From contig NZ_CP073754.1 of NCBI RefSeq assembly GCF_018734325.1, forward strand, positions 2,294,001 to 2,358,000: a stretch of DNA of 64,000 nt. Reading direction: 5' to 3'. Under the pieces are notes generated by a model. That model was not told where the DNA came from and did no database searches. It saw only the letters and a list, made by a program, of their open reading frames with translations. Both the position numbers and the translations under genes were made by a program. How positions within the stretch are numbered: position 1 is the first letter of the stretch; each line of letters begins with the position of its first letter. This DNA is from Methylomonas paludis. Lineage in GTDB: Bacteria; Pseudomonadota; Gammaproteobacteria; Methylococcales; Methylomonadaceae. This document shows positions 1,342-49,114 of this stretch, piece after piece.

Positions 1342-1363
1342 GCCACAACCATCGTCAGCCTGT

Positions 1364-1389
1364 GCCCGGCTTGATGTTCGGGCCTTTTT
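1364..1389 (+). terminator. Weak intrinsic terminator-like hairpin between Nit1C genes 1 and 2
   Basis: A 5-bp GC-rich stem (GCCCG / CGGGC, 1364-1368 with 1379-1383) is followed by CTTTTTC. It sits between the stop of gene 1 and the ribosome-binding site of the nitrilase. It may lower expression of the downstream genes relative to gene 1; the stem is short, so termination would be partial at best. Confidence 0.4.
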
Positions 1390-1412
1390 CGACCTGCAAC
1401 GGGAGACCAATT

Positions 1413-2435
1413 GTGACTACCTCTAATATCGTTACAGCGGCAGCAGTACAGATTAGCCCAGTATTTGATTCTGCAACCGCCACCGGCGACAAGGTATGCC
1501 AGGCCATTAGCGATGCCGCGGCCCGTGGCGCACAAATTGTGGTGTTTCCGGAAACCTTTGTGCCCTACTACCCTTATTTTTCCTTCGTGCTGCCGCCGGT
1601 AGCCGCTGGACGTGAGCATTTAAAACTATACGATTATGCACCGACAGTACCTGGGCCGATCACCGATGCTGTGGCAGCGCAGGCCAAAGCTCATGGCGTG
1701 GTAGTGGTTTTGGGGGTTAACGAGCGGGATCACGGCAGTCTATATAACACCCAGCTGATTTTCGACGAAACCGGCCGACTGGCACTGAAGCGCCGCAAAA
1801 TTACCCCCACCTATCACGAACGCATGATCTGGGGCCAGGGAGACGCTGCCGGTTTAAAGGTGGTGGAAACCGGCATTGGCCGTATTGGCGCACTGGCATG
1901 CTGGGAACATTATAACCCGTTGGCCCGCTACGCTCTTATGGCCCAGCATGAACAAATTCATTGCAGTCAGTTTCCGGGATCATTGGTCGGCCCTATTTTT
2001 GCCGAGCAGATCGAAGTAACGATACGCCACCATGCCCTGGAATCCGGCTGTTTTGTGATCAACGCCACCGGCTGGCTGAGCGATGAACAAATTGATTCAG
2101 TTAGCAGCGATCCGGGCTTACAAAAAGCCCTGCGCGGAGGGTGTTGTACTGCCATTATCTCGCCGGAAGGTCAGCATGTGACTGAACCTTTGCGCGAGGG
2201 TGAAGGGATTGTGATTGCGGATATGGATATGACTCTGATTACCAAACGCAAACGCATGATGGATGCGGTAGGACATTATGCCCGGCCTGAACTGTTGAGC
2301 CTGCGTATTGATGACCGTCCGGCTGTACCGATGTTTAAGCACTTAACGGCAAACCCTGCAGCTATAAACCCACAAACTATTTTTTCCCAACCTGAACATG
2401 AAGGCGGTGCTTATGAATCCATCAAGACTATCTGA
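1413..2435 (+). CDS. Nit6803-family (nitrilase subfamily 1) nitrilase
   Basis: This carbon-nitrogen hydrolase of 340 residues is predicted to convert a nitrile to carboxylate and ammonia in the cytoplasm. The catalytic triad is visible: Glu in [11 protein letters not shown], Lys in [16 protein letters not shown], and Cys in [12 protein letters not shown] chose the GTG at 1413 because GGGAG lies just upstream and the frame then begins [19 protein letters not shown], as expected for nitrilases; an upstream GTG at 1362 would read through the hairpin. The family is the defining enzyme of Nit1C and is distinct from plant-type and arylacetonitrilases by its fixed gene neighbourhood. The end overlaps the start of the radical SAM gene, so translation is probably coupled. 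The natural substrate is not settled; small or amino-nitriles are plausible. Confidence 0.93.
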
Positions 2436-3525
2436 AACCGGGTCTGCCAGGCTGATTGCCGAACTGCAATCATTAGGCCTGCGCCTGGAAGATTGCACAG
2501 CGGGGGTGAGTGCCCGGCGGGGAGGTGCCGGCCCTACCGACCACAAGGCCGTCACAGTTGCCGGTCGCACCGTGATGATACCCATCGCCACGACTTCGGC
2601 TTATGCATCTCCATTCATCGCCAGTCCACCGGACCAACATGGTATCAGCGTGGTTCATCGCGCCGGCAAGGCGATTGCTGAGATAGTATTCCCGCGCCAA
2701 CCGCGTTTTTACGGTTTACAAACCAAAGATGGTGTGCCGTATTCACACATAGCCACCTTACATTCCAAAGACGTACTGGCCACGACTTTGTTGCAATCCT
2801 GCATTCGCTATGGCAATCGCCAGACTGCCTGCCAGTTTTGCGCCATAGGTCAATCGCTGGAAGCCGGTCAGACCATATTGCGCAAAACGCCGGAACAATT
2901 GGCCGAGGTAGCTGCAGCTGCAGTAGCGCTGGATCACATCAAACACATGGTGATGACTACCGGCACACCAAATCTGACTGATAGAGGCGCGAAAATTCTG
3001 TGCGAAAGCGCCAGCGCTGTTAAAGCCGCCGTCGATCTGCCTATTCAGGGACAGTGCGAGCCTCCAGACGACGATAGCTGGTTTATGCGTATGCGAGATG
3101 CCGGCATTGACAGCTTAGGTATGCATCTGGAGGCGGTCACAACGGAAGTACGCAGCCGCATAATGCCTGGTAAAGCACGGATCTCCATCCAACGATATAT
3201 GGATGCCTTCGATGCTGCCGTGGTGGTGTTCGGTCGTGGTCAGGTCAGCACTTATATATTGGCCGGACTGGGCGATACCCCTGAGGCCATCTTGTCTATC
3301 TCGCAACAATTGATCAACAAGGGAGTTTACCCCTTTGTAGTGCCATTTGTGCCGTTAGGCGGCACACCGTTAGCCCAGCATCCGGCGCCGACAGCGGAAT
3401 TTATGGTCAAAATATTGCCACAGCTTGGGTCTATGTTGAAAAAAGCTAATTTAATGTCTCATGACATCAAGGCCGGCTGCGCTAAATGCGGAGCCTGTTC
3501 CGCGCTAGCCAGTTATGAGGTGTGA
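2413..3525 (+). CDS. MSMEG_0568-family radical SAM protein (Nit1C)
   Basis: This 370-residue protein belongs to the radical SAM family found only in Nit1C clusters. The presumed cluster-binding motif is [14 protein letters not shown], a CX9CX2C spacing rather than the classical CX3CX2C. A second Cys group, GCAKCGACS, lies at the extreme C-terminus and could bind an auxiliary cluster. I prefer the ATG at 2413, with AAGGCGGT upstream, over the ATG at 2398; both overlap the nitrilase end. The reaction is unknown. Its obligate link to a nitrilase, an AIR-synthase-like enzyme and a GNAT suggests the cluster makes or processes a small nitrogen-rich compound (inference). Confidence 0.88.
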
Positions 3526-3526
3526 A

Positions 3527-4069
3527 ATGTTGCTCGAAAACTTTAAGCCGTTTTTTGCCAACGAATACCTGATCAAATACATCACTCAGGATTGGGAGTA
3601 TCGACAAATGCTGGCGCTGCGTCAGGCGGTGTTCTGCGCGGAACAAGGCATTTTTGCCGGCGACGACGTTGATAATATCGACAACACTGCGACCCATATC
3701 GTCGCCATTGCCTGTATTGCCGGTCTACCTGATCGCGTGGTTGGAACCGTGCGCATTCATACAGAAAAACCTGGGGTATGGTGGGGTTCGCGTTTGGCAG
3801 TGGATCAAGACTATCGCAAGCAAGGCAGCCTGGGTGCTGCGCTGATCCGCCTGGCGGTCTGCAGCGCTCACGCCAGGGGTTGCAACACCTTCCTGGCCCA
3901 GGTGCAAAGCCGCAACCAGCTATTATTCCGCCGCCTGCACTGGAAGTCTTTACAAGAACTATCGATACATAACCGGCCACACTATCTGATGCAGGCTGAT
4001 CTGGATTGGTATCCACCTTATGCTGATGGTGCCACGGGATTTGTTGCGACCGGCCGGATTGCGGCATGA
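3527..4069 (+). CDS. GNAT acetyltransferase, MSMEG_0567/Sll0786 N-terminal-domain type
   Basis: This 180-residue protein has a GNAT fold: a beta strand with VVGTVRIHTEKPGVWWGSRL leads into the acetyl-CoA binding VDQDYRKQGSLGAALIRLAV (a variant R/Q-x-x-G-x-G/A loop). I chose the ATG at 3527, with GAGGTG six bases upstream, over the ATG at 3515, which overlaps the radical SAM stop. In Mycobacterium the equivalent domain is fused to the AIR-synthase-like domain; here the two are separate genes overlapping by four bases (ATGA), which supports a physical or functional partnership. The acceptor substrate is unknown. Confidence 0.85.
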   Translation: MLLENFKPFFANEYLIKYITQDWEYRQMLALRQAVFCAEQGIFAGDDVDNIDNTATHIVAIACIAGLPDRVVGTVRIHTEKPGVWWGSRLAVDQDYRKQGSLGAALIRLAVCSAHARGCNTFLAQVQSRNQLLFRRLHWKSLQELSIHNRPHYLMQADLDWYPPYADGATGFVATGRIAA

Positions 4070-5034
4070 ATGCACTCGCAGAATTAACAGACCAAATCCG
4101 GCAAAGTATGGAACTGGCGCATAAACGCGATATTGCCCAGGTAATGGGCATGTTACCCACTATTCATGACATAGCTATAGGCGACGACTGTGCGGCTATT
4201 CCAGACGGTGATGGTTTTTTATTACTGGCAACCGAAGCTTATCTGAACGATTTTGTCGCCAGCCAGCCCTGGTTTGCCGGATATTGCGGGGTAATGGTCA
4301 ATGTCAGTGATATTTATGCGATGGGCGGCCGGCCGATTGCAGTTGTGGATGCACTGTGGAGTGAGGGCGTAGCTCAGGCAAAACCAATTTTAGCCGGCCT
4401 GAGCGCTGCTTCTGCGGTTTACAGCGTGCCGGTAGTGGGTGGTCACAGTAATTTGCGCAATGACCGCCCCCAATTGTCGGTAGCTATCCTGGGCCGGGCC
4501 AATCGGCTACTGAGCAGTTTTGCTGCGCAACCCGGCCAGCTTTTGCTGGCCGCCATCGATTTGCGCGGCCATTTCCGTGAACCTTATTTATGGTGGGATG
4601 CCAGCAGCAATGCAGCGCCAGAGCGCTTGCGCCTGGATCTGGAAATATTGCCGCAGCTTGCTGAAGCTGGCCTGTGCGCTGCAGCCAAGGATATCAGCAA
4701 TGCCGGTGTGATAGGCTCGGTACTGATGCTGCTGGAAGCATCCGGCCTGGGCGGCGTGATCGACATTACGGCCATACCGCGCCCACCAGATATGGATTTA
4801 TCATCCTGGTTGCGCTGTTTTCCCAGCTACGGCTTCGTGCTCAGCGTTGAACCTGCCCACACCAGTACAGTAATAGCTCTGTTTAGGCAACGCGATATCG
4901 TTTGCGCGCCAATCGGCGCGACTGATGATACCGGCCAACTCCGGCTTAATGATGGCACTAACGAACAACTGCTCTGGGATTTGCACGTCACTCCACTGAC
5001 TTCTTGCGGCCCTATCGTAGCAAAACAGTTTTAA
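4066..5034 (+). CDS. Sll0787-family AIR-synthase-like protein (Nit1C)
   Basis: The 322-residue product resembles the PurM/ThiL/SelD/HypE superfamily, which phosphorylates or activates small substrates with ATP. The N-terminal half carries the characteristic acidic GDDCAAIPDG element and a MVNVSDIYAMGGRPIAVVDA strand-helix that forms the dimer ATP site in PurM relatives; a glycine-rich VVGGHSNLRN loop follows. The start overlaps the GNAT gene in an ATGA arrangement. The true substrate is unknown; it is unlikely to be the purine intermediate itself, because the gene is restricted to Nit1C clusters. No membrane segment is visible. Confidence 0.87.
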   Translation: MNALAELTDQIRQSMELAHKRDIAQVMGMLPTIHDIAIGDDCAAIPDGDGFLLLATEAYLNDFVASQPWFAGYCGVMVNVSDIYAMGGRPIAVVDALWSEGVAQAKPILAGLSAASAVYSVPVVGGHSNLRNDRPQLSVAILGRANRLLSSFAAQPGQLLLAAIDLRGHFREPYLWWDASSNAAPERLRLDLEILPQLAEAGLCAAAKDISNAGVIGSVLMLLEASGLGGVIDITAIPRPPDMDLSSWLRCFPSYGFVLSVEPAHTSTVIALFRQRDIVCAPIGATDDTGQLRLNDGTNEQLLWDLHVTPLTSCGPIVAKQF

Positions 5035-5035
5035 C

Positions 5036-6211
5036 ATGCAAACACTACGCATAGCCATACTAACCCATTCCGTTAACCCTCGCGGCGGCGTGGTACATGC
5101 CATGCAACTGGCCGAGGCGCTGCAAGACTTAGGTCACGAGGTGACTTTGATCGCGGCGGCGGAAACAGGCAAAAGTTTTTTCCGGCCGGTAGGTTGCAAC
5201 ACTATCTTGATACCGTTACCGACATTGAGTGGCGATTTGACCAATACAATCGCACAACGCATTCAGGCTTATGTCCAGCATTTTGCAGCCCCCAACACCG
5301 ACACTTACCATGTTTACCATGCACAGGATGCCATCAGTGCTTGCGCTTTGGCCACACTGAGCGAACGAGGTGTGATCGCGGGTTTTGTGCGTACCGTACA
5401 TCATCTGGATAATTTCGACGATATCCGCCTGATGCACTGGCAAAAAATATCGTTCCAGGCGGCCAGGCAGGTACTGTGCGTCAGTCGTGACTGGCAGGAC
5501 AAATTGAGCAGGGATTACGCCATTGCTGCACTTAAAGTCAGCAATGGCATTGATGCCCAACGTTACACGCCCATACCACAAGCGGGGGATGACGAATTAG
5601 CTAAGATGCTAGGCTTAACTCGCAATGGTCCGGTATTTTTGGCAGTCGGCGGTATCGAACCCCGTAAGAATACTTTACGCATTTTCACGGCCTTTTGCGC
5701 GGTACTGCAACAGCAATCAAATGCTCAATTACTCATCGTCGGCGGCGCCAGTCTGCTTGATCATAGCGAATATCGGCAACAGTTTGATGCTGTTGTGACT
5801 GCTAGCGGCATCAAGAATGGACCAAGCCAGCCACTGCTGATAACCGGTTCATTATCCGACTGCGATATGCCGCGACTATTTCGTCTAGCCGATGCACTGA
5901 TATTTCCATCGTTAAGCGAAGGCTTTGGCTTGGTGGTTTTGGAAGCCATTGCCTCCGGCACCCCGGTGGTGGTCTCACGGCGGCCACCATTTACCGAATA
6001 CCTCCAAGCTCAGGACTGTGTCTGGACCCATCCCGAAAACAGTGCCTCTATTGCTATTGCCATGCTGACCGTTATCCAGGCCTTCCCGAAGCAGCGTTTA
6101 GCAGACATTGCCCAACGCTTGACAGCTGAATTCTCCTGGCATAGCTCAGCCAAGCAGCATCTGAATATTTATCAATCCATCATAAAAATCCAAGGAAGCA
6201 GTTATGCCTGA
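5036..6211 (+). CDS. MSMEG_0565-family glycosyltransferase (GT4 type, Nit1C)
   Basis: This 391-residue GT-B glycosyltransferase has the N-terminal Rossmann start RIAILTHSVNPRGGVVHAMQ, a central GGIEPRKN loop, and the C-terminal donor-sugar motif SEGFGLVVLEAIASGTPVV, which contains the EX7E pair typical of family GT4. It begins one base after the stop of the AIR-synthase-like gene. It should be cytoplasmic and use a nucleotide sugar; donor and acceptor are unknown. Its constant presence in Nit1C suggests that the cluster product is glycosylated (inference). Confidence 0.88.
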   Translation: MQTLRIAILTHSVNPRGGVVHAMQLAEALQDLGHEVTLIAAAETGKSFFRPVGCNTILIPLPTLSGDLTNTIAQRIQAYVQHFAAPNTDTYHVYHAQDAISACALATLSERGVIAGFVRTVHHLDNFDDIRLMHWQKISFQAARQVLCVSRDWQDKLSRDYAIAALKVSNGIDAQRYTPIPQAGDDELAKMLGLTRNGPVFLAVGGIEPRKNTLRIFTAFCAVLQQQSNAQLLIVGGASLLDHSEYRQQFDAVVTASGIKNGPSQPLLITGSLSDCDMPRLFRLADALIFPSLSEGFGLVVLEAIASGTPVVVSRRPPFTEYLQAQDCVWTHPENSASIAIAMLTVIQAFPKQRLADIAQRLTAEFSWHSSAKQHLNIYQSIIKIQGSSYA

Positions 6212-6491
6212 AATGCATTTTCGCGTGTGCTGGCCCGATCAAAGCGAAAGCCTCTGTTATTCGCCCTCATTGGTGATCAAAGATTTTTTAGTCCTCGGCC
6301 AAAGTTACCCGCTCCATGAGTTTGTTAACCTCAGTAGGGAGGCTTTGGAAATCGCCAGCGAACGGGTGCGCCAAAAATACGGCTATACCTGTTCCAGCGC
6401 GATGAGCCAGCTCAGCGAAATCGAAGCGACCGCAACCCAATTTTGGGATAGGAAAAATCCGCAAGTGTTTATCAAGGAATTTATTGAATAG
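6204..6491 (+). CDS. MSMEG_0570-family nitrogen starvation response protein (Nit1C)
   Basis: A small 95-residue protein, MPEMHFRVCWPDQSESLCYS at its start, matches the short MSMEG_0570 family that accompanies Nit1C. The gene overlaps the glycosyltransferase end by eight bases, with AAGGAAGC as its ribosome-binding site inside that gene. No catalytic motif is evident, and it may be a carrier or regulatory subunit. The next gene follows after 90 bp without an obvious terminator. Confidence 0.85.
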   Translation: MPEMHFRVCWPDQSESLCYSPSLVIKDFLVLGQSYPLHEFVNLSREALEIASERVRQKYGYTCSSAMSQLSEIEATATQFWDRKNPQVFIKEFIE

Positions 6492-6581
6492 CCACCGTTA
6501 CCCAGGGAGCCGGCCAGACCACTATTACCTATCAAGCTGATTTAAAGCATTACCCCACCATAAAATAAACAAGAGGAAGCT

Positions 6582-7841
6582 ATGAAAGAAAAACGCGAAC
6601 ATACCCGCCTGCACTATGAGGTGATTATCGTTGGTGGTGGACAAGCCGGTTTATCGGTGAGCCATTACCTGCAAAAACACGGTATAGATCATATGATCTT
6701 TGAAAAACACCGGATCGGCCATTCCTGGCGTAATCAGCGCTGGGACAGCTTCTGCCTGGTGACACCGAACTGGCAATGCCGACTGCCGGATTTTCCATAT
6801 CCGGGTAATGATCCCCAGGGCTTTATGCTTAAAGACGAAATCGTGGAATATATCGAAGCCTTTCGCAGCAAGGTTAACCCGCCTATTATGGAAGGGGTAT
6901 CTGTTAGCCGGGTTTACCGTGGTAAAAATGGCGGTTTTAATGTCACGACCAGTGCCGGTGAATTCACAGCCGATCACTTGATCATTGCTACCGGTGGTTA
7001 CGACATACCTATCGTGCCGGATTATGCTCACAGCTTGCCCGGTCATATCAAGCAAATTCACTCTGTGAATTATCGCAACCCGAAGCAATTACCCGAAGGT
7101 GAAGTGCTGGTGGTGGGTAGTGGTCAATCAGGTGTGCAGATTATGGAGGATTTGCATTTGGCGGGACGCAAAGTCCATCTGGCCGTTGGAAATGCTCCGC
7201 GTTCGCCGCGTATGTATCGCGGCCGGGAAACCACTGAATGGTTGTACGATCTGGGCTTCTACGAACTGACCATAGACCGCCATCCGCTAGGCGATGAGGC
7301 CAAACATAAGACCAATCATTTTCTGACCGGGCGGGACGGTGGGCATGAAATCGATCTACGCAAGTTTGCCTTGTCAGGCGTCAAACTTTACGGCAGCATG
7401 GCCAATATACAAGGCACCCGGCTGGAGTTTCAAACAGATTTGACCAAAAATCTGGACGATGCCGACGAAATCTATGTCAACATTCGCAACGATATAGATC
7501 GTTATATTGCCAGCAATAATATCAGTGCACCTGTTGAAGCACCGTTCCGCAAAGCATGGGAACCCGAATTTGATCCTGTCAGCATCGACGCTGACGCCGA
7601 GAACATTACCAGCATCGTCTGGGCAATCGGTTTCAGGCCCAATTACCGCTGGATAGAACTACCGGCATTTGATGGCCGTGGCTACCCGCAATTCGATCGC
7701 GGCGTCACTCATGTCGAAGGCCTGTATTTCATCGGCTTGCCCTGGTTACATACCTGGGGATCGGGGCGTTTTCTGGGCATTGCCGATGATGCTGAGTATC
7801 TATCCGGCCTCATTCATGACAAATTATTGGTTAAATCCTAA
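6582..7841 (+). CDS. MSMEG_0569-family flavin-dependent oxidoreductase (Nit1C)
   Basis: This 419-residue protein resembles flavin monooxygenases (FMO/Baeyer-Villiger type). The FAD-binding GGGQAGLSVSHYLQ is at residues 18-31, and a second nucleotide-binding glycine motif, VVGSGQSGVQIMEDL, lies near residue 180 for NAD(P)H. A conserved SIVWAIGFRPNY segment lies near the C-terminus. AAGAGGAAGC precedes the ATG. It closes the operon and is followed by a symmetrical terminator. It presumably oxidises a cluster intermediate, possibly by N- or C-hydroxylation; the substrate is unknown. Confidence 0.9.
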   Translation: MKEKREHTRLHYEVIIVGGGQAGLSVSHYLQKHGIDHMIFEKHRIGHSWRNQRWDSFCLVTPNWQCRLPDFPYPGNDPQGFMLKDEIVEYIEAFRSKVNPPIMEGVSVSRVYRGKNGGFNVTTSAGEFTADHLIIATGGYDIPIVPDYAHSLPGHIKQIHSVNYRNPKQLPEGEVLVVGSGQSGVQIMEDLHLAGRKVHLAVGNAPRSPRMYRGRETTEWLYDLGFYELTIDRHPLGDEAKHKTNHFLTGRDGGHEIDLRKFALSGVKLYGSMANIQGTRLEFQTDLTKNLDDADEIYVNIRNDIDRYIASNNISAPVEAPFRKAWEPEFDPVSIDADAENITSIVWAIGFRPNYRWIELPAFDGRGYPQFDRGVTHVEGLYFIGLPWLHTWGSGRFLGIADDAEYLSGLIHDKLLVKS

Positions 7842-23098: not shown

Positions 23099-23430
23099 AT
23101 GTATATCAAAAAAAGGCTTACTGAAAACAGAATACAGCCTTGTTTTTTAAAACCGGGGTTTGCCAAATCCCGTGCCGGCATACTAGCAACAATTTTGCTG
23201 GGATCTACAAGCTTATTATCTGAAGCCGCTTTAGCAACAGATTGGGCCACCACTGGCGGTACATTAGACGGCCAACGTTATAGTGCGCTTAACCAAATTA
23301 ACACCACCAATGTGGGCACCCTGACCGAGGACTTCTCAGTCGATACCGGAACCAAGGGCAGTCACATGGGTGAACCATTAGTGGTGGGATCGGAAATTGT
23401 CAATGTAGTTGTCGCCTCGACGTTTAAATC

Positions 23431-24513
23431 TTAAGCGGCATTTTTGTTCTGAGTTGTCTCCTCTGTATTAGGTTTACTGTTAGTCACTGGCTTATCAGGA
23501 TTAAGGTGGACTGCTTGGATGCAATCCCAATTCCGCGTGTTACCAGTCCATCGCTTCGGGTTTCGATCACGGGCAGCCTCATAAACGGCTTTACGCTTAA
23601 CCAGTAGGCCTTGATCTAAGCCTTCATGGCGTTGCGCTGGCGTGACAAACCGGATGGCGCTGTGGCGATGCTCGTGGTTGTACCATTCCACCAGTCTCGT
23701 TACCCAGTCACGAGCATCCGTCACCTTTGCAAACGGCTTTAACGGATAGTTTGGCCGGTATTTTAAGGTCTTAAAGAGCGATTCTGAGTAAGGATTGTCG
23801 TTGCTAACCGAAGGCCGACTTAACGAGGGCATGACACCGAGTTGTTGCAAGGTTGCCAGCATGGTAGCGCCTTTCATGGGGCTACCGTTATCAGAGTGCA
23901 GTATCAGCTGTTTGGGCTGTATCCCCTCACGATGGCACAGGTCACGTAACAATTCGCCTGCCAAGGTACTGCTTTCCTCTTCAAACACCTGCCAACCCAC
24001 GATCTTTCGGCTGAAAATATCCACAAACAGGTAAAGATAGAAAAACTGTCCACGGATTGCTGATGGCAGATAGGTAATATCCCAGCTATAAAGTTGGTTA
24101 GGTACGGTGGCACAGAGGGCACGCGGTTTAGTGCGGGATTGAGCAGGGCGTTCACTGCGACGGTGTGCCAATTGGTTTTCTGCTCGCAGTACGCGATAGA
24201 ATGTCGATTCAGAAGCCAGATAGCGGCCTTGATCGGCCAGCCGAGGTACGATCTGACTCGGCGGCAGATGCCCAAATTCATCGGAATTGGCAACAGCCAA
24301 CACCTCGGCTCGCTCCATGACGGTAAGCTTATGCGGCGGTTGATATTCACGTAATGGACGTTGATCACAATGAACGGTCTCACCGGTCTGCCAGCGCTGC
24401 AAGGTGCGTTCGCTTAAACCCAGCACTTCACAAGCTTGGGCTTGCCGCGCACCCGCTATTATCGATTCATTCAGTAAAACAATTACTTGCTTGCGCTCTT
24501 CGTGGGCAGTCAT
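23431..24513 (-). CDS. IS3-family transposase OrfB (DDE integrase core)
   Basis: The 360-residue protein has an N-terminal HTH (GLSERTLQRWQTGE) and an rve/DDE catalytic core: first Asp in SWDITYLP, second Asp in ILHSDNGSPMKG, and Glu in NPYSESLFKTLKYRP. These match the D-D-35-E pattern of the IS3 family. The ATG at 24513 overlaps the orfA stop by four bases (ATGA), so the two frames are coupled by overlap rather than by the programmed frameshift used in many IS3 elements. It appears intact. Confidence 0.92.
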   Translation of the reverse strand: MTAHEERKQVIVLLNESIIAGARQAQACEVLGLSERTLQRWQTGETVHCDQRPLREYQPPHKLTVMERAEVLAVANSDEFGHLPPSQIVPRLADQGRYLASESTFYRVLRAENQLAHRRSERPAQSRTKPRALCATVPNQLYSWDITYLPSAIRGQFFYLYLFVDIFSRKIVGWQVFEEESSTLAGELLRDLCHREGIQPKQLILHSDNGSPMKGATMLATLQQLGVMPSLSRPSVSNDNPYSESLFKTLKYRPNYPLKPFAKVTDARDWVTRLVEWYNHEHRHSAIRFVTPAQRHEGLDQGLLVKRKAVYEAARDRNPKRWTGNTRNWDCIQAVHLNPDKPVTNSKPNTEETTQNKNAA

Positions 24514-25001
24514 TCGACCTCTCCCCCCAAGAGCGCTCGGAACTTTTTTTGCAGAACCAACAGCGCGGCGGCTTCTGCTAAGGCTTTGTCTTTGCGTAAC
24601 AACTCTCGCTCCAGGGTATGAATTTCCGCTTTTAGGGTATGCACTTCACCTTTTTCAGATACGCCACCCTGACGACAGAATTCAGCTTTCCACTGCTCAA
24701 GCTGATGAACGAATAACCCTTGTTCACGGCACCAGGCATTCAAGTCTTCCCCGTTCAAGCCATAAGATTTCTGTAACGCTGAGAGACGTTCTTCAGGACG
24801 CCAATCATCAGGGCGTTTCGATTTCGACGGTAGATCTCGGGAGTTATGCAATTTAGCTTTTTTCATCCATGTTTTTAGGGTTTGCCAGCAAACGTTCAAG
24901 TCCTTCGCAATATCCTGAATCGATTGGTCGTTTCCACGGTTGTAAACTTTTCTCAGAGCTTGCTCTTTGAAGTCTTCAGAATACCTTGTATATGTTTTCA
25001 T
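24510..25001 (-). CDS. IS3-type transposase OrfA (HTH protein)
   Basis: The 163-residue protein starts MKTYTRYSEDFKEQALRKVY, a typical transposase HTH beginning, with DIAKDLNVCWQTLKTWMKKA as the recognition helix region. A leucine/Glu-rich coiled-coil follows (EKGEVHTLKAEIHTLERELL), as in OrfA proteins that pair with OrfB. A longer start at 25013 is possible. The gene appears intact, so the element may still be mobile. Confidence 0.88.
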   Translation of the reverse strand: MKTYTRYSEDFKEQALRKVYNRGNDQSIQDIAKDLNVCWQTLKTWMKKAKLHNSRDLPSKSKRPDDWRPEERLSALQKSYGLNGEDLNAWCREQGLFVHQLEQWKAEFCRQGGVSEKGEVHTLKAEIHTLERELLRKDKALAEAAALLVLQKKFRALLGGEVE

Positions 25002-26589
25002 CTCTAATCTCAAATTTTATTGGCTTTAAAAATTTGAGACGACAACTAGTCTGACGCGGGGGGGGATCAACATTATATGTTGTCACGCCTTTTCCAAATA
25101 AGTTAATTGCTTATGATTTGGCGAATAAAGGTGCCAAACGCTGGACTTATAACCCAGGTGTTAACAGCTATGCCAAAGGGGTGAATTGTTGCGATGCCAT
25201 CAATCGAGGCGCTGCATATGCCAATGGCAAGATAGTGTTTAATTTATTGGACAATACCACTGTCGCTGTTGATGCGGTCAAAGGTACTGAAATATGGCGC
25301 AATACCACAGCGGACGTACATTCTGGCGTAACAACGGCAGGCGCACCAATTATTGTCAACGGCAAAGTCATTGTGGGCACGGTTAGCGGCGAGATGGGCG
25401 TGCGCGGCTGGGTGCTGGCACTTGATCTGGTTACCGGCAAGGAATTATGGCGTGGTTATCACACCGGACCCGATAAAGATGTATTGATTAACAGTCAGAC
25501 CAAACTGCCGTATACCACATCGGGTCAAAATACCAATTTGGGTCAAACCAGTTGGCCTGGCAATACTTGGCAACAAGGTGGCAGCTCCGCCTGGGCCTAC
25601 CTGACTTACGATAAGGAAACTGATACCGTGTTTTATGGTACCAGTCAGCCTGGGGTATGGAATCCGGAAATTCGTAGTCCTGGCGATAATAAATGGGGCG
25701 CATCGATTTTTGCCAGAGATCCCAATACCGGTGCGGTGAAATGGGTATATCAGGTTACCCCGCATGATAACTGGGACTATGATGCCATTAGTGAAAGTAT
25801 TCCAGTTGATCAAACCATCAACGGCGTTTCCCGTAAGCTGCTGGTACATTTTGACAAGAATGGCTTTGCTTATGCATTCGATCGTGAATTAGGTGAAATC
25901 ATTAGTGCGAATCAATTTGTCACCGATGTGAATTGGGCCAGCCAAATTAATTTAACTACCGGACGGCCATTGGTAAATGCAGACAAACTTACCCATACCG
26001 GCAAAACAACTTATGACATTTGCCCCTCGGCACTGGGTGCTAAAGGTTGGGAGCCTGGCTCCTTCTCGCCAAGTACCGGTCTGTTCTATATGCCTACTTT
26101 TAACTTATGCATGAAACAACACATGTTAAGAGCTGAATATGTTTATGGCGCACCTTATATGGCGATGGACATGGCGATTACAGGTGCACTGACTGATCCA
26201 ACTTATACCAGCGAATTAGTGGCCTGGGATGCCACCAAAGGACAAAAAGTATTCGGTTTAAAAGAACCAAGCGCCATATACGGCGGAGTACTTAGTACAG
26301 CCGGCGGCTTGGTGTTCTATGGTACTCAGGACAAAGTCATTAAAGCAATTGATGCCCGCCCTGATAAGGCCGTTAATGGGGTACCCAAGCTGTTGTGGTC
26401 AACCAAAATGGAATGTAGCACAGTCGGCAATCCTATCACCTTTACTGGCCCAGATAACAAACAACGAGTTGCCGTTTTCAGCGGTGTAGGGGCAATGGCT
26501 GGTGGTTTTGGTGGTGGTGCTTGTACAGGCAAGAATGGCGGTAAAGTTCATGTCTATAAACTTCCGTAACAAGTAAAAAAGGTCTCGGC

Positions 26590-27405
26590 ATGTTCACCAA
26601 GTTTCATAATTGTAATGTATGGCTATTTCTGGCTTTTTGGCCATTGCTTATGTCCCATAGCCAAGCTGTGATTGCCAAACAGGAACTGCGTGTTTGTGCC
26701 GATCCTGATAATTTACCGTATTCCAATCGTAAACAAGAGGGTTTTGAAAACAAAATTGCTGCGCTTTTAGCCAAGGAATTGCACGCCAAACTGAGTTATA
26801 CCTGGCAGCGACAAAAAAATGGCTTTATTCGGCAAACCCTGGGGGCCAACCGATGTGATGTGGTAATGGGAGTCCCTTATGGTTATGAACGGGTGCTTTC
26901 TACCCAACCTTATTATTGGTCCGGCTATGTATTTGTCACGGCACGGAATCGTCATTTGTCTATCGCGTCTTTTGACGATCCGATACTGCGCCAGTTGAAA
27001 ATTGGGCTGCATGGTATCGGTAACGACGGCTCAAATTCCCCGCCGGCCAGTGCGCTTGCCGTGCGTGGTATTACCGAAAATATTGTTGGTTATTCCATGT
27101 GGGGCGATACCACGCAGAAAAACCCACAGGCACAAGTGATTGATGCAGTGGCTAAAGGTGATATTGATGTTGCGATTGTGTGGGGGCCAATTGCAGGTTA
27201 TTACGCCAAGAAATACGGCAATGACCTGGAGTTGACACTGGCACCACATGACCCAAAGCTGCCTGATATGCCATTTGATTATGAAATTGCTTTGGGTGTT
27301 AGAAAAACCGATCAAGCATTTGCGGAAAAATTGGAAAAAATACTGGAAAAGCAGCAAAGCCATATCCAAAACATACTTTCTACATACAACGTTCCGCTTA
27401 TTTAA
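26590..27405 (+). CDS. XoxJ/MxaJ-like periplasmic solute-binding protein
   Basis: The 271-residue protein has a signal peptide (LFLAFWPLLMSHSQAVIA) and a periplasmic binding fold: ELRVCADPDNLPYSNRKQEGFENKIA is the hallmark start of quinoprotein dehydrogenase-associated binding proteins (MxaJ/XoxJ). Other blocks are GANRCDVVMGVPYGYERVLSTQ and GDIDVAIVWGPIAGYYA. XoxJ is thought to help mature or activate XoxF. It begins 20 bp after the xoxF-like stop, so it was in the same operon and is probably cut off from the original promoter by the IS. The frame is intact. Confidence 0.87.
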   Translation: MFTKFHNCNVWLFLAFWPLLMSHSQAVIAKQELRVCADPDNLPYSNRKQEGFENKIAALLAKELHAKLSYTWQRQKNGFIRQTLGANRCDVVMGVPYGYERVLSTQPYYWSGYVFVTARNRHLSIASFDDPILRQLKIGLHGIGNDGSNSPPASALAVRGITENIVGYSMWGDTTQKNPQAQVIDAVAKGDIDVAIVWGPIAGYYAKKYGNDLELTLAPHDPKLPDMPFDYEIALGVRKTDQAFAEKLEKILEKQQSHIQNILSTYNVPLI

Positions 27406-27484: not shown

Positions 27485-28060
27485 ATGAGAGCTCTACCTA
27501 AATCTTTTAAACATGTGTTAGGGGCAATGACCCTAATATTGATGGTTAGTGCGGCAAATGCCGACCCAAAAATAATCAGTACCTATAAAGCCCGGAATTC
27601 TGCGGAAACCGAAGATGGTTCAGGTGGAAACACCGGCAGCTCCGGAAATACTGGAACTACCAGTAACAGTACTACTGCTACTGGTAGTGCTAACAAAGCT
27701 GCTACAACTTACACTATTCCCAGTAATTTCAATTTTAATTGCAGCACTAGAAATCCTAAGGCTGATGCGATCGAAAATGGCCGCAGAGCTTATGTACGAC
27801 TGAATTGTACCGTTTGCCACTCAAGCACCGGTCATGGCGGTACTATGGGGCCAAGTCTGGTTGACGCTGGTGGCGATGTGGCCGAAGCGGTCACCCAGGG
27901 TCAAGAAGGCGGTATGCCATCATTCAAAAAATATTTATGCCCTAATGATATTGCCGATCTTACCGCTTATATTAATACACTGGGCTCCAAAGCTTCGCCG
28001 GACTTCACGGACTGGTGGGTCACCAACCCTCCGGCCCCTTTTGTGGACAGCGCCCCTTAG
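27485..28060 (+). CDS. Monoheme cytochrome c, XoxG-like
   Basis: The 191-residue secreted protein has a signal peptide ending near SAANA, a low-complexity Gly/Ser/Thr linker, and a class I cytochrome c domain with heme site CTVCHSSTGHGG and a likely distal Met in EGGMPSFKKYLC. XoxG-type cytochromes accept electrons from XoxF. Position after the xoxF- and xoxJ-like genes supports that role. GAGGCAA precedes the ATG. The unusual Gly/Ser/Thr spacer may make it flexible or membrane-distal (inference). Confidence 0.8.
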   Translation: MRALPKSFKHVLGAMTLILMVSAANADPKIISTYKARNSAETEDGSGGNTGSSGNTGTTSNSTTATGSANKAATTYTIPSNFNFNCSTRNPKADAIENGRRAYVRLNCTVCHSSTGHGGTMGPSLVDAGGDVAEAVTQGQEGGMPSFKKYLCPNDIADLTAYINTLGSKASPDFTDWWVTNPPAPFVDSAP

Positions 28061-28129: not shown

Positions 28130-28204
28130 ATGAATTGGGAAACACCTAGCTTTACCGATCTGCGTTTTGGTTTTGAAGTAACCATGTATATCTATAACCG
28201 TTAA
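28130..28204 (+). CDS. pqqA: PqqA, precursor peptide of the cofactor PQQ (24 residues)
   Basis: The peptide begins MNWETPSFTDLRFGFEVTMY and ends IYNR. The conserved Glu16 and Tyr20 (FEVTMY) are the residues that are cross-linked by PqqE to form PQQ. GAGGAAAT lies at normal distance before the ATG. It is 69 bp after the cytochrome gene, and no pqqB-E follow, so it is an extra or orphan pqqA linked to the dehydrogenase cluster. A hairpin follows immediately. Confidence 0.93.
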   Translation: MNWETPSFTDLRFGFEVTMYIYNR

Positions 28205-30295: not shown

Positions 30296-30422
30296 AGCAT
30301 GGACAGCACCAGTTATTTTGAACAAAATACGGACAACTGATTACCAATCTATCCATCAAGCAAAGCCATCCATCTCTTAAGCCTTCAGTAAAACCAAAAA
30401 CAGAATAATCAAATTTTGTGCG

Positions 30423-30447
30423 TATAATACCTAGACAGTCTAGACAG
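30423..30447 (+). promoter_or_regulatory. Promoter -10 and operator-like repeats before phd-PIN
   Basis: A consensus -10 TATAAT (30423-30428) is followed by CTAGACAGTCTAGACAG (30431-30447), a tandem repeat of CTAGACAG with an internal palindrome TCTAGA, just before the antitoxin start at 30463. This looks like a site for autorepression by the antitoxin complex. The -35 box is not clear. Confidence 0.55.
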
Positions 30448-30462
30448 ATATGGGAGAAAATT

Positions 30463-30708
30463 ATGCATTGGCAATTACAAGAAGCAAAAAACAAGCTGAG
30501 CCAGGTCATCCACGAGGCACAAACCACAGGTCCACAGACCATAACCGTACGCGGAAAAGAGACCGCAGTTGTAATTTCGGCTGCAGACTATCAAAAATTG
30601 ACAGATAAAAAAGACTCATTACTCAAATTCTTCCAGGAATCACCCTTGACTGATGTAGAGCTTGATTTGACGCGATCCAAGGAGAGTGGCAGAGATATCG
30701 AGCTATGA
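30463..30708 (+). CDS. Phd/YefM-family antitoxin
   Basis: The 81-residue protein begins MHWQLQEAKNKLSQVIHEAQ, followed by a GPQTITVRGKETAVVISAAD hairpin typical of Phd/YefM antitoxins; the C-terminal part is charged and probably binds the toxin. I start it at the ATG at 30463, preceded by GGGAGAAAA. It overlaps the toxin gene by four bases (ATGA), so the two are co-translated. It appears intact. Confidence 0.9.
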   Translation: MHWQLQEAKNKLSQVIHEAQTTGPQTITVRGKETAVVISAADYQKLTDKKDSLLKFFQESPLTDVELDLTRSKESGRDIEL

Positions 30709-31124
30709 ATTACCTTTTGGATACCTGTGTCTTATCCGAATTAATAAAACCACAGCCCAACCAGAATGTCGCCACCTGGATTGAAAAAATTCAGGAGTGC
30801 CATTTGTACATCAGCGCTCTGACTATGGGCGAAATTCAAAAGGGAATCTCTAGACTGGAGAATTCAAAAAAGAAACAATCACTCCAAATTTGGCTGGAAC
30901 AAGATTTGGCCGCCCGATTTTCGGGCAGAATCTTGTCTGTAGATGCTGAAATCTCACTTGAATGGGGAAACATGCAAGGACAAGCGATTCGCTCAGGAAC
31001 GACATTACCAGTCATAGATAGCCTGATCGCAGCAACCGCAAAATGTCATAACTTGACGCTTGTAACAAGAAATTTGGAAGACTTCAAAAATCTGCCGATC
31101 AATTTGAATAATCCATGGCTATAA
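30705..31124 (+). CDS. PIN-domain toxin (VapC/FitB-like)
   Basis: The 139-residue protein has the PIN acidic residues: Asp in MNYLLDTCVLSELIKP, Glu in SALTMGEIQKGI, Asp in PVIDSLIAATA, and the final Asp/Asn region LVTRNLEDF. VapC/FitB nucleases cut specific tRNAs or rRNA until blocked by the antitoxin. It forms an intact module with the overlapping Phd-type antitoxin and is the only complete gene pair left in this island remnant. Confidence 0.92.
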   Translation: MNYLLDTCVLSELIKPQPNQNVATWIEKIQECHLYISALTMGEIQKGISRLENSKKKQSLQIWLEQDLAARFSGRILSVDAEISLEWGNMQGQAIRSGTTLPVIDSLIAATAKCHNLTLVTRNLEDFKNLPINLNNPWL

Positions 31125-31168
31125 GCTCTACAGAACATATTTTTTGCATGAATGCATGCTAAAACGTG

Positions 31169-31297
31169 TTACGTCCCTTTTCCTTGAGCCGTTGGGCTTA
31201 ACCAACAGATAAAGGCCGTCCCAGCATTCAGGTGTTTATCTTTCGCTTCCGGCTTCGCCTTGCGTAAGCCTGCATCGTTAAGTAGATGTTTTGCCAT
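31169..31297 (-). pseudogene. Remnant of a P4-type integrase, N-terminus
   Basis: Leftward from ATG at 31295-31297 the frame reads MAKHLLNDAGLRKAKPEAKD, the DUF4102 start of tyrosine integrases. After a one-base shift the reading LYLLVKPNGSRKR continues the expected pattern (compare LYLLVKVNGSKWW of the intact integrase at 49.0 kb). Everything after about 45 residues is lost. Its place next to the att-like scar at 31.5 kb matches the intact integrase next to tRNA-Leu. Confidence 0.75.
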
Positions 31298-31371
31298 GCA
31301 GAATCCCTCGATTTATAGTAACTGAGCAGTACAAATGCAGTAACCTTTTTATCACTGGCATGGCATTACTG

Positions 31372-31518
31372 TAAAACTTACTGCAAAATTTGCCGAGTGT
31401 TGCTGCATTTCCTTGTACTTCTCTGGACAACAAAAAACCCGCCAAGCCTTACAGCTTACGGGTTTCTGGAGTTATTCGGCTTGCTTAGAACCTTGAATTG
31501 GTACCGATGGCCGGATTT
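31372..31518. repeat. Island right-end repeat with terminator and tRNA-Leu 3' scar 2
   Basis: About 147 bp that resemble 33353-33505 closely and 49170-49313 more loosely. It contains a terminator (31431-31465; AAAAAACCCGCCAAGCC paired with GCTTACGGGTTT, read leftward) and then TGGTACCGATGGCCGGATTT, the tRNA-Leu 3' end with CCA. It marks the right end of the first small island remnant. Confidence 0.75.
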
Positions 31519-31719
31519 TAACAATCTTTTACTTTCATATAGTTATATAAGTATTGATGCAATTCTGATGCAATTAAAAAAATCATCATGCTGCATTTTT
31601 GACATGAACGACAGCAATTATTTGACTGCCAACACTCAGCATTATTTATCGAGCCGGTTCAATTCCTAAAGACGTTCTTGAATAGCATCCTAAGATCTAC
31701 GCTTAGGAATAGTGCAATT

Positions 31720-31763
31720 AGATTGACAAGGTAAGATTTTTTCCTTACATTATCAATCTACAG
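31720..31763 (+). promoter_or_regulatory. prlF promoter overlapped by a palindromic operator
   Basis: TTGACA (31723-31728), a 17-bp spacer and TACATT (31746-31751) form a good sigma-70 promoter. The arms AGATTGACAAGGTAAG and, as complement, AGATTGATAATGTAAG match at 13 of 16 positions and cover both promoter boxes. This fits autorepression by a PrlF-YhaV complex. Confidence 0.7.
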
Positions 31764-31780
31764 TTTATGGAAACACAAAG

Positions 31781-32101
31781 ATGCCGCACATTCATGAAAC
31801 CGCTACCGTCACATCAAAAGGCCAGATCACCCTGCCCAAACCTATCCGCCAGGCATTAGGTATTTCAGTCGGCGAAAGGATTGCCTTTGATTTGAGAGGA
31901 ACAGAGGTCATCGTAAGCAAGGCAGAAGAATCCGAACATGTAGACCCTGCCATCGTGGCTTTTTTATCCTTGCTGGAGCAAGACATTCAATCAGGAAGCC
32001 ACCTAAGCTCTCTGCCGGATGATTTAAAATTAGCGATGCTTAATCATCAAGATCACAGTATCGATCTTGATGAGGAAATTTTGGGCGATGTCGAACTATA
32101 A
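31781..32101 (+). CDS. prlF: PrlF (SohA/HtaR-type) antitoxin, AbrB fold
   Basis: The 106-residue protein has a swapped-hairpin AbrB domain (ATVTSKGQITLPKPIRQALG, GERIAFDLRGTEVIVSKAEE) and an acidic C-terminal half (SIDLDEEILGDVEL) likely to bind the toxin. Its stop overlaps the yhaV start by one base. The promoter upstream has a palindromic operator. The frame is intact. Confidence 0.9.
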   Translation: MPHIHETATVTSKGQITLPKPIRQALGISVGERIAFDLRGTEVIVSKAEESEHVDPAIVAFLSLLEQDIQSGSHLSSLPDDLKLAMLNHQDHSIDLDEEILGDVEL

Positions 32102-32553
32102 TGCAGAAACAGGGATGGACACTGCTCTTTCACGCCTGTTTGATCGAGCAACTACAAAAACTGAATGCTGCCGCTAATCGGGCTATCGAATCTGATCCTG
32201 AAGGTTTTGAAAGTAATGCCAACGTCAAGCTGTTACGAGCTTTAAGCCAGCTTATTTTAGAAACCATACCCAGCGACCCGGCGCGGGAGGAATATCGCCA
32301 AGGGAATACAATGGGCGCCAATTACCGCCATTGGCGGCGCGCAAAAATCGGTCGGCGATTCAGATTGTTTTTTCGGTATGACTCTAAAGCAAAATTGATT
32401 ATTTATGCCTGGGTTAATGATGAACAAACCCTGCGCTCAGCCGGCAGCAAGACCGATCCCTATACTGTGTTTCAAAAAATGCTGGAACGGGGCAATCCTC
32501 CGAATGATTGGAAAAATTTGGTTGCGGCATGTCAGGAAGATTTTTTAGATTAA
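32101..32553 (+). CDS. yhaV: YhaV-type ribonuclease toxin
   Basis: The 150-residue toxin has the YhaV features: N-terminal GWTLLFHACLIEQLQKLNAA, a GANYRHWRRAKIGRRFRLFF block and FRYDSKAKLIIYAWVNDEQT, ending in a NPPNDWKNL helix. YhaV is a RelE-like ribosome-dependent RNase, neutralised by PrlF. The pair is intact and is the only complete cargo of the second island remnant. Confidence 0.92.
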   Translation: MQKQGWTLLFHACLIEQLQKLNAAANRAIESDPEGFESNANVKLLRALSQLILETIPSDPAREEYRQGNTMGANYRHWRRAKIGRRFRLFFRYDSKAKLIIYAWVNDEQTLRSAGSKTDPYTVFQKMLERGNPPNDWKNLVAACQEDFLD

Positions 32554-42311: not shown

Positions 42312-43925
42312 CTAGCCATTTTTCCATCCGCTGTTAATATGCTCCCTATCCACTTGCCAGGGCAGCAGTGATTCAATATCTTCCAGAGTCTGAGCCTTGG
42401 GCAGTTCTTTAAAAATATGATGCAGATAGCGATACGGCTCCAGTCCATTGAGTTTGGCGGTTTCAATCAGGCTATAGAGATTGGCACTGGCTTTGGCGCC
42501 TTTTATGGTATCGGCGAATAGCCAGTTATTACGACCAATGACAAAGGGCCGGATGGCGCGTTCCACGGCATTGTTATCAATGTCTAACCGCCCATCTTGG
42601 CAATAGACGGTGAGTGTTGACCACTGGTTAGCCAGATAGCCCAAGGCTTTGCCGGTTAAGCTGGTGGGGGCCACTTGGGTTAAGGAGATATCCAACCAAG
42701 CTTTGATTTCATGCAGGATCGGCACGGCCTGCTGTTGGCGAATCCGGTATTTTTCATCGACCGACAGATATTTGATTTGCGTCTCAATCCGGTACAGTTT
42801 CTGGATCATGATTAAGGCCTTACTGACTTTGCCGGCTTTAGGCTGAGCTTTGCCTTGGGCTTTTAAGGCTTCATCGAATTTACGTCTGGCGTGTGCCCAA
42901 CACCCGGCATGGCGCAAGCCGTTTTTAGCGCACACGGTCGGGTAAGCGGCGTAGCCGTCGGTTTGCAGCGTACCGCTGTAACCTTGTAGCAGTTGGTCTG
43001 CCACGGCCTGGCTGCGGGTGGGTGCATAGTGAAACAGCACGACTGGTTGATCAGGTGGGCCACCGCGCTGTACCCACAGATAAGACTGACTGCTAGCGGC
43101 TTTGCCCTCTTCTTTCAAGACTTGTAGCGTGGTTTCATCCATTTGCAGAATGGGGTACTGATGCAGGTGTTCCTGCATCAAATTGCACAAAGCTTGAATC
43201 AGCTCGCCGCAACGAATCGCCCATAAAGACAGGGTGCCGCGTGATAGCTCAACGCCGATACGCTGAAACTGTTTACTTTGCCGGTAAAACGGCAAGGCAT
43301 CCAGGAATTTGCTGGTGATCAGATAAGCCAGTAAACCGGGCGAAGCATTGCTTTTAGGCAGCGGTTGCGGCGGCAGTGGCGCGGTTTTCACCTCGGCCTG
43401 ACAGCAAGGGCAGGCATACTTGATGCGGATATGGCGTAACACCTGCACCTTGGCTGGAATGATGTCCAGTTGTTCGGACACTTCAGTACCGATTTCTTTT
43501 AGCGCATGGCCGGCTGAGCAACGGCGTTGCGCTTCCGGTAGGTCGTGGATGATCTCAACGCGGGGGAGTGCAGCAGGCAGGGCTTTACGGCCAGGCTTGA
43601 CCGGTACAGTTTGGCCGGGCTGGGCTGCGGAAGCGATAGGCGCTGATGCATTTTCGGTGGCGGCCACCACTTCAGAGGTGGCCGTCGCCGTTTCAGCGGT
43701 CGTTTCATCCGACTCTTCGGCATAGGCTTCCGCCTCATTGAACATATCCGCTTGCTCTGCCCGGTATTTCTCGCTATTGGCGCCAAAGCGTTTATGTAGC
43801 AAGAGATTGATTTGCTCTTGCAGAATATCGTGTTTTGATTGTAATTGCCGATAATCACGCGTCAGCGTACGTAGCATTTTCTGCAGGCTGTCGACATCTG
43901 AAGGCAATTCAAGCTCTTGTTCCAT
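42312..43925 (-). CDS. tnpC: IS66 transposase TnpC
   Basis: The 537-residue protein has an N-terminal leucine-zipper region (LQKMLRTLTRDYRQLQSKHD), the HKRFGANSEKY block, a zinc-finger (HIRIKYACPCCQAEVKTAPL), the DDE core beginning at LQMDETTLQVLKE and including LQTDGYAAYPTVC and NNAVERAIRPFVIGRNNWLF, and the C-terminal GLEPYRYLHHIFKELP. It appears full length and intact. Confidence 0.96.
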   Translation of the reverse strand: MEQELELPSDVDSLQKMLRTLTRDYRQLQSKHDILQEQINLLLHKRFGANSEKYRAEQADMFNEAEAYAEESDETTAETATATSEVVAATENASAPIASAAQPGQTVPVKPGRKALPAALPRVEIIHDLPEAQRRCSAGHALKEIGTEVSEQLDIIPAKVQVLRHIRIKYACPCCQAEVKTAPLPPQPLPKSNASPGLLAYLITSKFLDALPFYRQSKQFQRIGVELSRGTLSLWAIRCGELIQALCNLMQEHLHQYPILQMDETTLQVLKEEGKAASSQSYLWVQRGGPPDQPVVLFHYAPTRSQAVADQLLQGYSGTLQTDGYAAYPTVCAKNGLRHAGCWAHARRKFDEALKAQGKAQPKAGKVSKALIMIQKLYRIETQIKYLSVDEKYRIRQQQAVPILHEIKAWLDISLTQVAPTSLTGKALGYLANQWSTLTVYCQDGRLDIDNNAVERAIRPFVIGRNNWLFADTIKGAKASANLYSLIETAKLNGLEPYRYLHHIFKELPKAQTLEDIESLLPWQVDREHINSGWKNG

Positions 43926-49106: not shown

Positions 49107-49114
49107 GTATCCAC

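What the first reader, a model, noticed from the sequence alone, without database searches (positions are those of the whole stretch)
23099..26569. xoxF-like lanthanide dehydrogenase interrupted by an IS3-type element, and restorable in frame
Removing bases 23392-25068 (the IS plus one copy of GGGATC) gives an uninterrupted 597-residue PQQ dehydrogenase of normal length, with signal peptide, adjacent Cys pair and the WDYD motif of lanthanide enzymes. No other lesion is visible, so the insertion is probably recent. The xoxJ- and cytochrome-like genes after it remain intact. The strain may be a natural knockout of one alcohol dehydrogenase, or a mixed population.
Basis: partly seen in the sequence, partly recalled or inferred. 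Interest (0 to 1): 0.8.

Follow-up and report, generated by a model that had tools for sequence, protein, structure and literature searches.

The report
Rare-earth methanol enzyme gene, knocked out
In the lake methane-eating bacterium Methylomonas paludis S2AM, a jumping gene has recently cut one of its rare-earth-type methanol enzyme genes in two, and that gene belongs to a little-studied group whose metal-holding site carries an unusual amino acid.

Summary
A complete IS3-family element (23391-25063, 1673 bp) splits a PQQ dehydrogenase gene within codon 98; the two parts form one 597-aa frame, with intact relatives up to 88% identical. The target duplication is 4 bp (GGAT), not GGGATC: 9 of 9 full-length copies in the genome have a 4-bp duplication and 8 of 9 are identical, so the insertion looks real and recent. 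The genome length equals that of Methylomonas paludis S2AM. It keeps open XoxF5 and MxaF genes and a second pqqA: a likely natural knockout of an accessory enzyme.

It falls not with XoxF5 but in an XoxF3 group, in a patchy xoxF-xoxJ-cytochrome-pqqA cassette. In its mainly Methylococcales subgroup the metal ligand Asn (SolV Asn256) is Gln: 57 of 236 sequences have Gln, 179 Asn, including all five MxaF/XoxF1/XoxF2/XoxF5 structures used. The Glu55 position is mostly Met. XoxF3 was described as biochemically unstudied, so this is testable. Mixed populations could not be tested without reads.

The parts
23099..23390 (+). 5' part of the split xoxF3-like gene: signal region and residues 1-97 of 597, plus one base of codon 98
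   Evidence: the open fragment (23099-23434) matches TIGR03075
23387..23390 (.). left copy of the 4-bp target duplication GGAT
23391..25063 (-). complete IS3-family insertion sequence, 1673 bp, transposase genes on the minus strand
   Evidence: Ends set by 9 full-length copies in the same genome and by relatives of 67-69% identity in G013, G014, G027 and G023 aligning 1-1673
23431..24513 (-). orfB, 360 aa, rve integrase-core transposase (IS3 family)
24510..25013 (-). orfA, 167 aa, HTH_Tnp_1; overlaps orfB by 4 bases
25064..25067 (.). right copy of the 4-bp target duplication GGAT
25068..26569 (+). 3' part of the split xoxF3-like gene, with Cys138-Cys139, Glu206, Gln291, Asp334, Asp336 in numbering of the joined 597-aa protein
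26590..27405 (+). xoxJ-like periplasmic binding protein
   Evidence: TIGR03871 304.4 bits over cut-off 212
27485..28060 (+). c-type cytochrome, xoxG-like by position
   Evidence: Cytochrome_CBB3 / Cytochrom_C; conserved downstream of xoxJ in 10 of 10 related loci examined
28130..28204 (+). pqqA, 24 aa
   Evidence: PF08042 over cut-off; 79-92% identical copy in 8 of 10 related operons

Best explanation
In Methylomonas paludis S2AM an IS3-family element, apparently active, has recently inserted into the xoxF gene of a xoxF-xoxJ-cytochrome-pqqA operon, duplicating GGAT and interrupting codon 98 of 597. The 3' part keeps the catalytic residues but lacks the signal region and the first part of the propeller, so no working periplasmic enzyme is expected; the strain is a natural knockout of this enzyme and would rely on its XoxF5 and MxaF. 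Before the insertion the gene encoded a periplasmic PQQ alcohol (probably methanol) dehydrogenase of the XoxF3 group. In its mainly Methylococcales subgroup the inner-sphere metal ligand Asn is replaced by Gln, while Glu, the catalytic Asp and the extra lanthanide Asp are kept, and the Glu55 position is mostly Met. Shown here: insertion, duplication, frame, signs of recency, clade, conserved Gln. Inferred: IS activity, loss of enzyme activity, lanthanide dependence, substrate, and that the Gln changes metal or substrate choice.
For: Frame and join. Nine of nine full-length IS copies have perfect 4-bp duplications, 8 of 9 with no mismatch over 1673 bp. Intact orthologues: P0001-P0007 at 74-88% identity and 95-100% coverage; G031 and G013 at 85%, open 592-aa frames. 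No accelerated change: pN to Methylovulum 0.204 for the split gene against 0.205 for G031; to LL1 0.261 against 0.253. Open XoxF5 and MxaF genes in the same genome (placed). Rooted tree of 50 chosen rows: split gene within a 34-row group (99/99) with Gemmatimonadetes enzymes and two alphaproteobacterial enzymes whose operons carry xoxJ and cox genes; XoxF1, XoxF2, XoxF5 and MxaF lie outside (operons). Ligand columns: Glu 236 of 236; Gln 57 and Asn 179 of 236; second (lanthanide) Asp 234 of 236. Seven of 7 plasmid-borne references, outgroups included, have Asn. A Gln-motif DNA pattern was found in 13 of 151 Methylococcales genomes and in 1 of 398 Pseudomonadota genomes (the window's own), with none for the reversed control. 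Fold of orthologue P0001 matches XoxF 4mae first. XoxF3 protein of Methylosinus trichosporium rises with cerium (PMC12482762 passage), which supports a lanthanide link for XoxF3 in general.
Against: No reads, expression or activity were examined. The XoxF3 name rests on tree position and on literature labels for Gemmatimonadetes and for cox-bearing operons, not on a named reference enzyme; the two outgroup rows are long branches that the tree program flags as possibly joined falsely. Gln is not strictly confined to Methylococcales: one five-tip group includes a Rhodospirillales MAG (L068), one single tip (P0119) also has it, and parsimony needs 4 changes on an approximate tree. The 398-genome sample was not chosen for having xoxF3, so its lack of the motif says little about Asn against Gln. 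In the P0001 model the ten-residue block starting at Gln291 has mean pLDDT 65, and no coordinates were available, so ligand geometry was not tested.
Confidence: 0.87

Rival explanations
1. The insertion is present only in part of the population, or is an assembly error, and most cells keep an intact gene.
For: No reads were available; the IS has about ten copies in the genome, which can confuse assemblers.
Against: A perfect 4-bp duplication flanks the element here as at all 9 full-length copies, which a misjoin would not be expected to produce. The assembly is one contig from Illumina plus PacBio reads (PMC8446776, first part of the text seen).
Confidence: 0.07
2. The split gene still works: the IS excises precisely at times, or the 3' part is made as a separate active protein.
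For: The 3' part is long and open from a TTG codon, and the frame is otherwise undamaged.
Against: The 3' part lacks the signal region and the first part of the propeller; no promoter-like site was listed on the + strand at the IS end (consensus scan only); precise excision of IS3-type elements is rare (recalled, not tested).
Confidence: 0.05
3. The Gln-type enzymes are not methanol dehydrogenases of the lanthanide kind but oxidise another alcohol or aldehyde, or use another metal; the loss in S2AM then concerns a side pathway.
For: Gln for the metal ligand Asn, and Met at the Glu55 position in 51 of 57 Gln sequences; patchy distribution, 13 of 151 Methylococcales genomes by exact motif; an XoxF5 gene coexists in the window's genome.
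Against: The lanthanide Asp is kept in 57 of 57 Gln sequences; the operon with xoxJ, cytochrome and pqqA resembles other xox operons; the best solved relative is XoxF of SolV.
Confidence: 0.3

Closest known systems
XoxF3-type PQQ dehydrogenases (Gemmatimonadetes, Acidobacteria, Proteobacteria)
   Same: Same group in the rooted tree; xoxJ and cytochrome genes beside xoxF; lanthanide Asp kept.
   Different: Gln instead of Asn at the metal ligand and mostly Met at the Glu55 position; pqqA rather than cox/ctaG genes follow the cytochrome; here broken by an IS.
XoxF2 methanol dehydrogenase of Methylacidiphilum fumariolicum SolV (4MAE)
   Same: Best solved match by sequence (494 bits) and by fold (orthologue P0001); Glu172, Asp299 and Asp301 positions kept.
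   Different: About 42% identity (P0001 fold alignment); Asn256 is Gln; separate clade.
XoxF5 of Methylomonas and Methylotuvimicrobium (6DAM)
   Same: PQQ enzyme with the lanthanide Asp.
   Different: Separate clade; the window's genome has its own open XoxF5 gene elsewhere.
IS3-family insertion sequences (ISAs20-like transposases)
   Same: orfA/orfB arrangement, rve core, short target duplication; a transposase annotated as ISAs20 family is a 55.9% relative.

Membership tests
IS3-family element | OrfB with rve integrase core scoring above the IS3 family cut-off | tested here: met
   NF033516 191.4 bits, cut-off 160; PF00665
IS3-family element | Direct target duplication of about 3-5 bp (range recalled) | tested here: met
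   4 bp at 9 of 9 full-length copies
IS3-family element | OrfAB fusion by frameshift (recalled) | not tested
   orfA and orfB overlap by 4 bases; no frameshift assay or motif search
Lanthanide-dependent XoxF | PQQ dehydrogenase of the methanol/ethanol family | tested here: met
   3' part 458 bits to TIGR03075 (cut-off 480 for the whole protein), 5' part matches profile 9-70; fold match 4mae (orthologue P0001)
Lanthanide-dependent XoxF | Extra Asp at the SolV Asp301 position | tested here: met
   Asp336 of the joined protein
Lanthanide-dependent XoxF | Metal ligands Glu, Asn, Asp, Asp as in solved XoxF | tested here: not met
   Glu206, Gln291, Asp334, Asp336; the solved enzymes in the rows of Table 1 of PMC11845868 that I saw (passage) have Asn
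Lanthanide-dependent XoxF | Activity depends on lanthanide | not testable with these tools
   No assay
XoxF3 | Groups with XoxF3 and apart from XoxF1, XoxF2, XoxF5 and MxaF | tested here: met
   99/99 group of 34 rows in rooted tree; XoxF4 not included; no named XoxF3 reference enzyme, labels inferred from PMC10875860 passages
XoxF3 | cox/ctaG cytochrome genes in the operon (reported for a few, so not strictly defining) | tested here: not met
   Operon here is xoxF-xoxJ-cytochrome-pqqA; cox genes follow in L165 and L168

The most novel reading that the evidence does not exclude
Some methanotrophs evolved an XoxF3 enzyme with a rebuilt PQQ-metal pocket (Gln for the ligand Asn, Met at the Glu55 position) that prefers different lanthanides or substrates from XoxF5. 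It travels as a xoxF-xoxJ-cytochrome-pqqA cassette and is dispensable enough that one lake isolate, purified with lanthanum in the medium, carries it broken by an IS.
Probability: 0.35. Interest if true: 0.7.

Novelty: new variant of a known kind. Interest (0 to 1): 0.45.

Why it matters
XoxF3 occurs in many soil bacteria and methanotrophs but, according to PMC10875860 (passages seen), had no biochemical data. A subgroup that changes an inner-sphere metal ligand is a natural experiment on how these enzymes choose lanthanides. S2AM offers a cultured strain with that enzyme already broken beside congeners that keep it, so its role can be tested by comparison. The IS insertion alone would be ordinary.

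Tried and rejected
Target duplication of 6 bp (GGGATC): rejected after comparing nine full-length copies. Gene as ordinary XoxF5: rejected by tree. XoxF2-like, suggested by the best solved match: rejected, SolV and Methylacidimicrobium enzymes form their own clade. The low identity of the N-terminal part to G031 (54%), which first suggested recombination, comes from the fast-changing signal region; mature residues 49-97 are 73-76% identical to G031 and G013. Loss of PQQ synthesis through polarity: unlikely, a second pqqA exists. Interruption of named genes by other IS copies: flanking pieces were read apart but not identified. Intact alleles of the same species: none among the 120 hits listed of 3703, the best being 88% identical, which does not show that none exist.

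Literature: ten searches. No listing or passage that I saw reports an Asn-to-Gln change in XoxF (aimed at this; one search returned 0 papers) or an IS in this gene. I saw passages of eight papers (PMC12482762, PMC6028718, PMC11392852, PMC8446776, PMC10875860, PMC11845868, PMC6222125, PMC10715148), of PMC8446776 also the first of three parts of the text, and only listings of the others. Most subscription journals are not held and no supplements were read.

Rows dropped or chosen: the 31-bp IS match L018 is left out of the copy count. Two weak partial hits at 1928181-1928627 are not counted as family enzymes. One search left out L088 and the window's own fragments (L003, L004, L007, L019). One search dropped 12 identical rows (248 to 236). 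The tree used 57 hand-chosen rows (the joined protein, 37 locus proteins, 14 of the 120 proteins listed, 5 structures); one search dropped 14 of these, among them the long-branched AM2-LC copy, and added 7. Alignment A1 used 41 of the 120.

Full report
What was checked. The window lies in a single-contig genome of 3,673,651 bases at 2,294,001-2,358,000. That length is exactly the one published for Methylomonas paludis S2AM, accession CP073754, isolated from hypoxic water of Lake Alinen Mustajarvi on dilute nitrate mineral salts with 0.1 uM lanthanum and sequenced with Illumina and PacBio (PMC8446776; first of three parts of the text seen, passages). I therefore take the organism to be that strain. 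The parts of that paper that I read mention mxaF and xoxF but no interrupted copy.

The insertion. Bases 23391-25063 are a complete IS3-family element with orfA and orfB on the minus strand. The genome search found the window copy, eight further full-length copies and one internally deleted copy. All 9 full-length copies are flanked by perfect 4-bp duplications; 8 of 9, the window copy included, are identical over 1673 bp, and the ninth is 1677 bp long. The deleted copy (1292 bp) has no duplication. Relatives at 67-69% identity in four other Methylomonas genomes (G013, G014, G027, G023) align from base 1 to 1673, which supports the ends; 16 of 37 genomes of the genus, own included, had some match. 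A misassembly would not be expected to create a duplication.

The gene. Joined in a script, the flanks give an uninterrupted 597-residue frame. The site is colinear with the intact gene of G031, G013, Methylovulum and LL1. The best relatives in the protein collection are 74-88% identical over 95-100% of the length (P0001-P0007; 3703 proteins at E up to 1e-60, 7997 candidates scored, 120 listed). Over mature residues 49-597 the split gene is no faster than its congener: pN to Methylovulum is 0.204 against 0.205 for G031, and to LL1 0.261 against 0.253. Synonymous sites are near saturation in these comparisons, so only pN is used. The end branch of the split gene (0.07) is like that of P0001 (0.05-0.06). 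Together with the identical IS copies, this points to a recent insertion.

The rest of the cell. The genome holds two other enzymes that score over this family's cut-off, both without stops inside; two further weak partial hits (1928181-1928627) were not pursued. One of the two groups with XoxF5 of Methylotuvimicrobium (6DAM), the other with MxaF. A second pqqA over the family cut-off lies at 3,351,551. xoxJ, the cytochrome and pqqA behind the split gene are open. No promoter-like site was listed on the plus strand at the IS end; the whole stretch gave 5 sites against 9.3 expected in shuffles, so whether they are still transcribed is unknown.

What kind of enzyme it was. Among 37 Methylomonas genomes (own included; some are incomplete), one search shows relatives of this gene at 55% identity or more in seven (G000, G003, G005, G009, G013 twice, G031, G034); an eighth, G032, has a divergent copy in a 729-aa frame. 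All are in the same clade. G032 has the length of Methylomonas sp. AM2-LC (PMC11392852, passage seen). In 10 of 10 related loci examined, xoxF is followed by xoxJ and the cytochrome, and in 8 of 10 by pqqA; none of the five tested neighbouring genes of the window was found within the 13-14 kb fetched. This patchy cassette with changing neighbours suggests horizontal transfer, an inference.

A tree of 50 chosen rows rooted with two distant alcohol dehydrogenases places the split gene in a group of 34 rows (99/99) with Gemmatimonadetes enzymes and with two alphaproteobacterial enzymes whose operons carry xoxJ and cox genes (operons). XoxF1 (7O6Z), XoxF2 (4MAE), XoxF5 (6DAM, 6OC5) and MxaF are outside. 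The two outgroup rows are long and the program warns that such joins may be false. PMC10875860 assigns Gemmatimonadetes enzymes to XoxF3, reports cox and ctaG in a few xoxF3 operons and says XoxF3 systems had not been studied experimentally (passages). PMC12482762 reports xoxF3 in 22 gammaproteobacterial methanotroph genomes, with multiple copies in two Methylomonas, and XoxF3 protein of Methylosinus trichosporium up under cerium (passages). I therefore call the gene XoxF3-type. No named XoxF3 reference sequence was in my set, and XoxF4 was not represented.

The unexpected feature. Aligned to SolV XoxF, the ligand positions Glu172, Asn256, Asp299 and Asp301 are Glu206, Gln291, Asp334 and Asp336 in the split protein. 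The Asn column is Gln in 57 and Asn in 179 of 236 different sequences; Glu is 236 of 236, the second Asp 234 of 236, the catalytic Asp 232 of 236. The stretch around it aligns without gaps (TSQPGVWN against TSNPGTWN). Seven of seven plasmid-borne references, outgroups included, have Asn; one of them (L164) has Asp at the Glu position. The rows of Table 1 of PMC11845868 that I saw list Asn as ligand for the solved MxaF and XoxF (passage). The Glu55 position is Met in 51 of 57 Gln-type sequences, Gln in 5 and Glu in 1; in the sister set of 82 it is Gln in 67; outside it is Glu in 97 of 97. That Glu55 touches PQQ is recalled, not from a call. An exact DNA pattern for the Gln motif occurs in 13 of 151 Methylococcales genomes (7 of 44 genera) and in 1 of 398 Pseudomonadota genomes, that one being the window's own; the reversed pattern gave none in either. 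An exact pattern misses variants, so these are lower bounds; G031 and G032, for instance, were not in the order sample. The phylum sample was not chosen for having xoxF3.

Results against a neat picture. Gln is not a single clean event: on an approximate tree parsimony needs 4 changes and the Gln sequences form groups of 43, 7, 5, 1 and 1 tips; the group of five includes a Rhodospirillales MAG (L068). I have no activity data. So the Gln is a firm sequence fact and its chemical meaning is open.

Verdict. The IS insertion by itself is ordinary and the strain is best read as a natural knockout of an accessory enzyme. The enzyme group it points to, XoxF3 with Gln at the metal, is a new variant of a known kind as far as my limited literature searches show, and can be tested directly.

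Noticed in passing
L056 (G032, length of Methylomonas sp. AM2-LC), 5499-7127: A very divergent Gln-type copy (729-aa frame, branch 1.44) with eight insertions of 8-31 residues relative to the split protein and G031, in the strain reported as closest to M. paludis; ligands Glu/Gln/Asp/Asp are kept.
   Followed up: partly
G000:C1:1405106-1406398 (L016/L017): An internally deleted copy of the same IS (1292 bp) without matching flanks.
   Followed up: partly
L008, L015, L016 flanks: Three other copies of the IS sit beside sequence whose translations share a RCVASRLRV-like string, perhaps an intergenic repeat; by eye.
   Followed up: no
1362-7841: Cluster of nitrilase-like, radical-SAM-like, AIR-synthase-like, glycosyltransferase and flavoprotein genes, recalled as resembling the Nit1C cluster; by eye, no family search was run.
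   Followed up: no
30418-32553: Two pairs of small genes that look like toxin-antitoxin modules (Phd/VapC-like and AbrB-like with partner), by eye only.
   Followed up: no
47853-49118: Tyrosine-recombinase-like integrase near an IS66-like transposase (42312-43925), suggesting a genomic island downstream of the xox operon; by eye only.
   Followed up: no
L166 (Polaromonas plasmid), residue aligned to Asp336: This outgroup enzyme has Thr where lanthanide enzymes have the extra Asp, while L167 (Aquabacterium) has Asp.
   Followed up: no
L164 (Methylosinus sp. C49 plasmid), 3683-5485: A plasmid-borne XoxF5-side relative on a long branch has Asp where the other references have the metal ligand Glu.
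   Followed up: no
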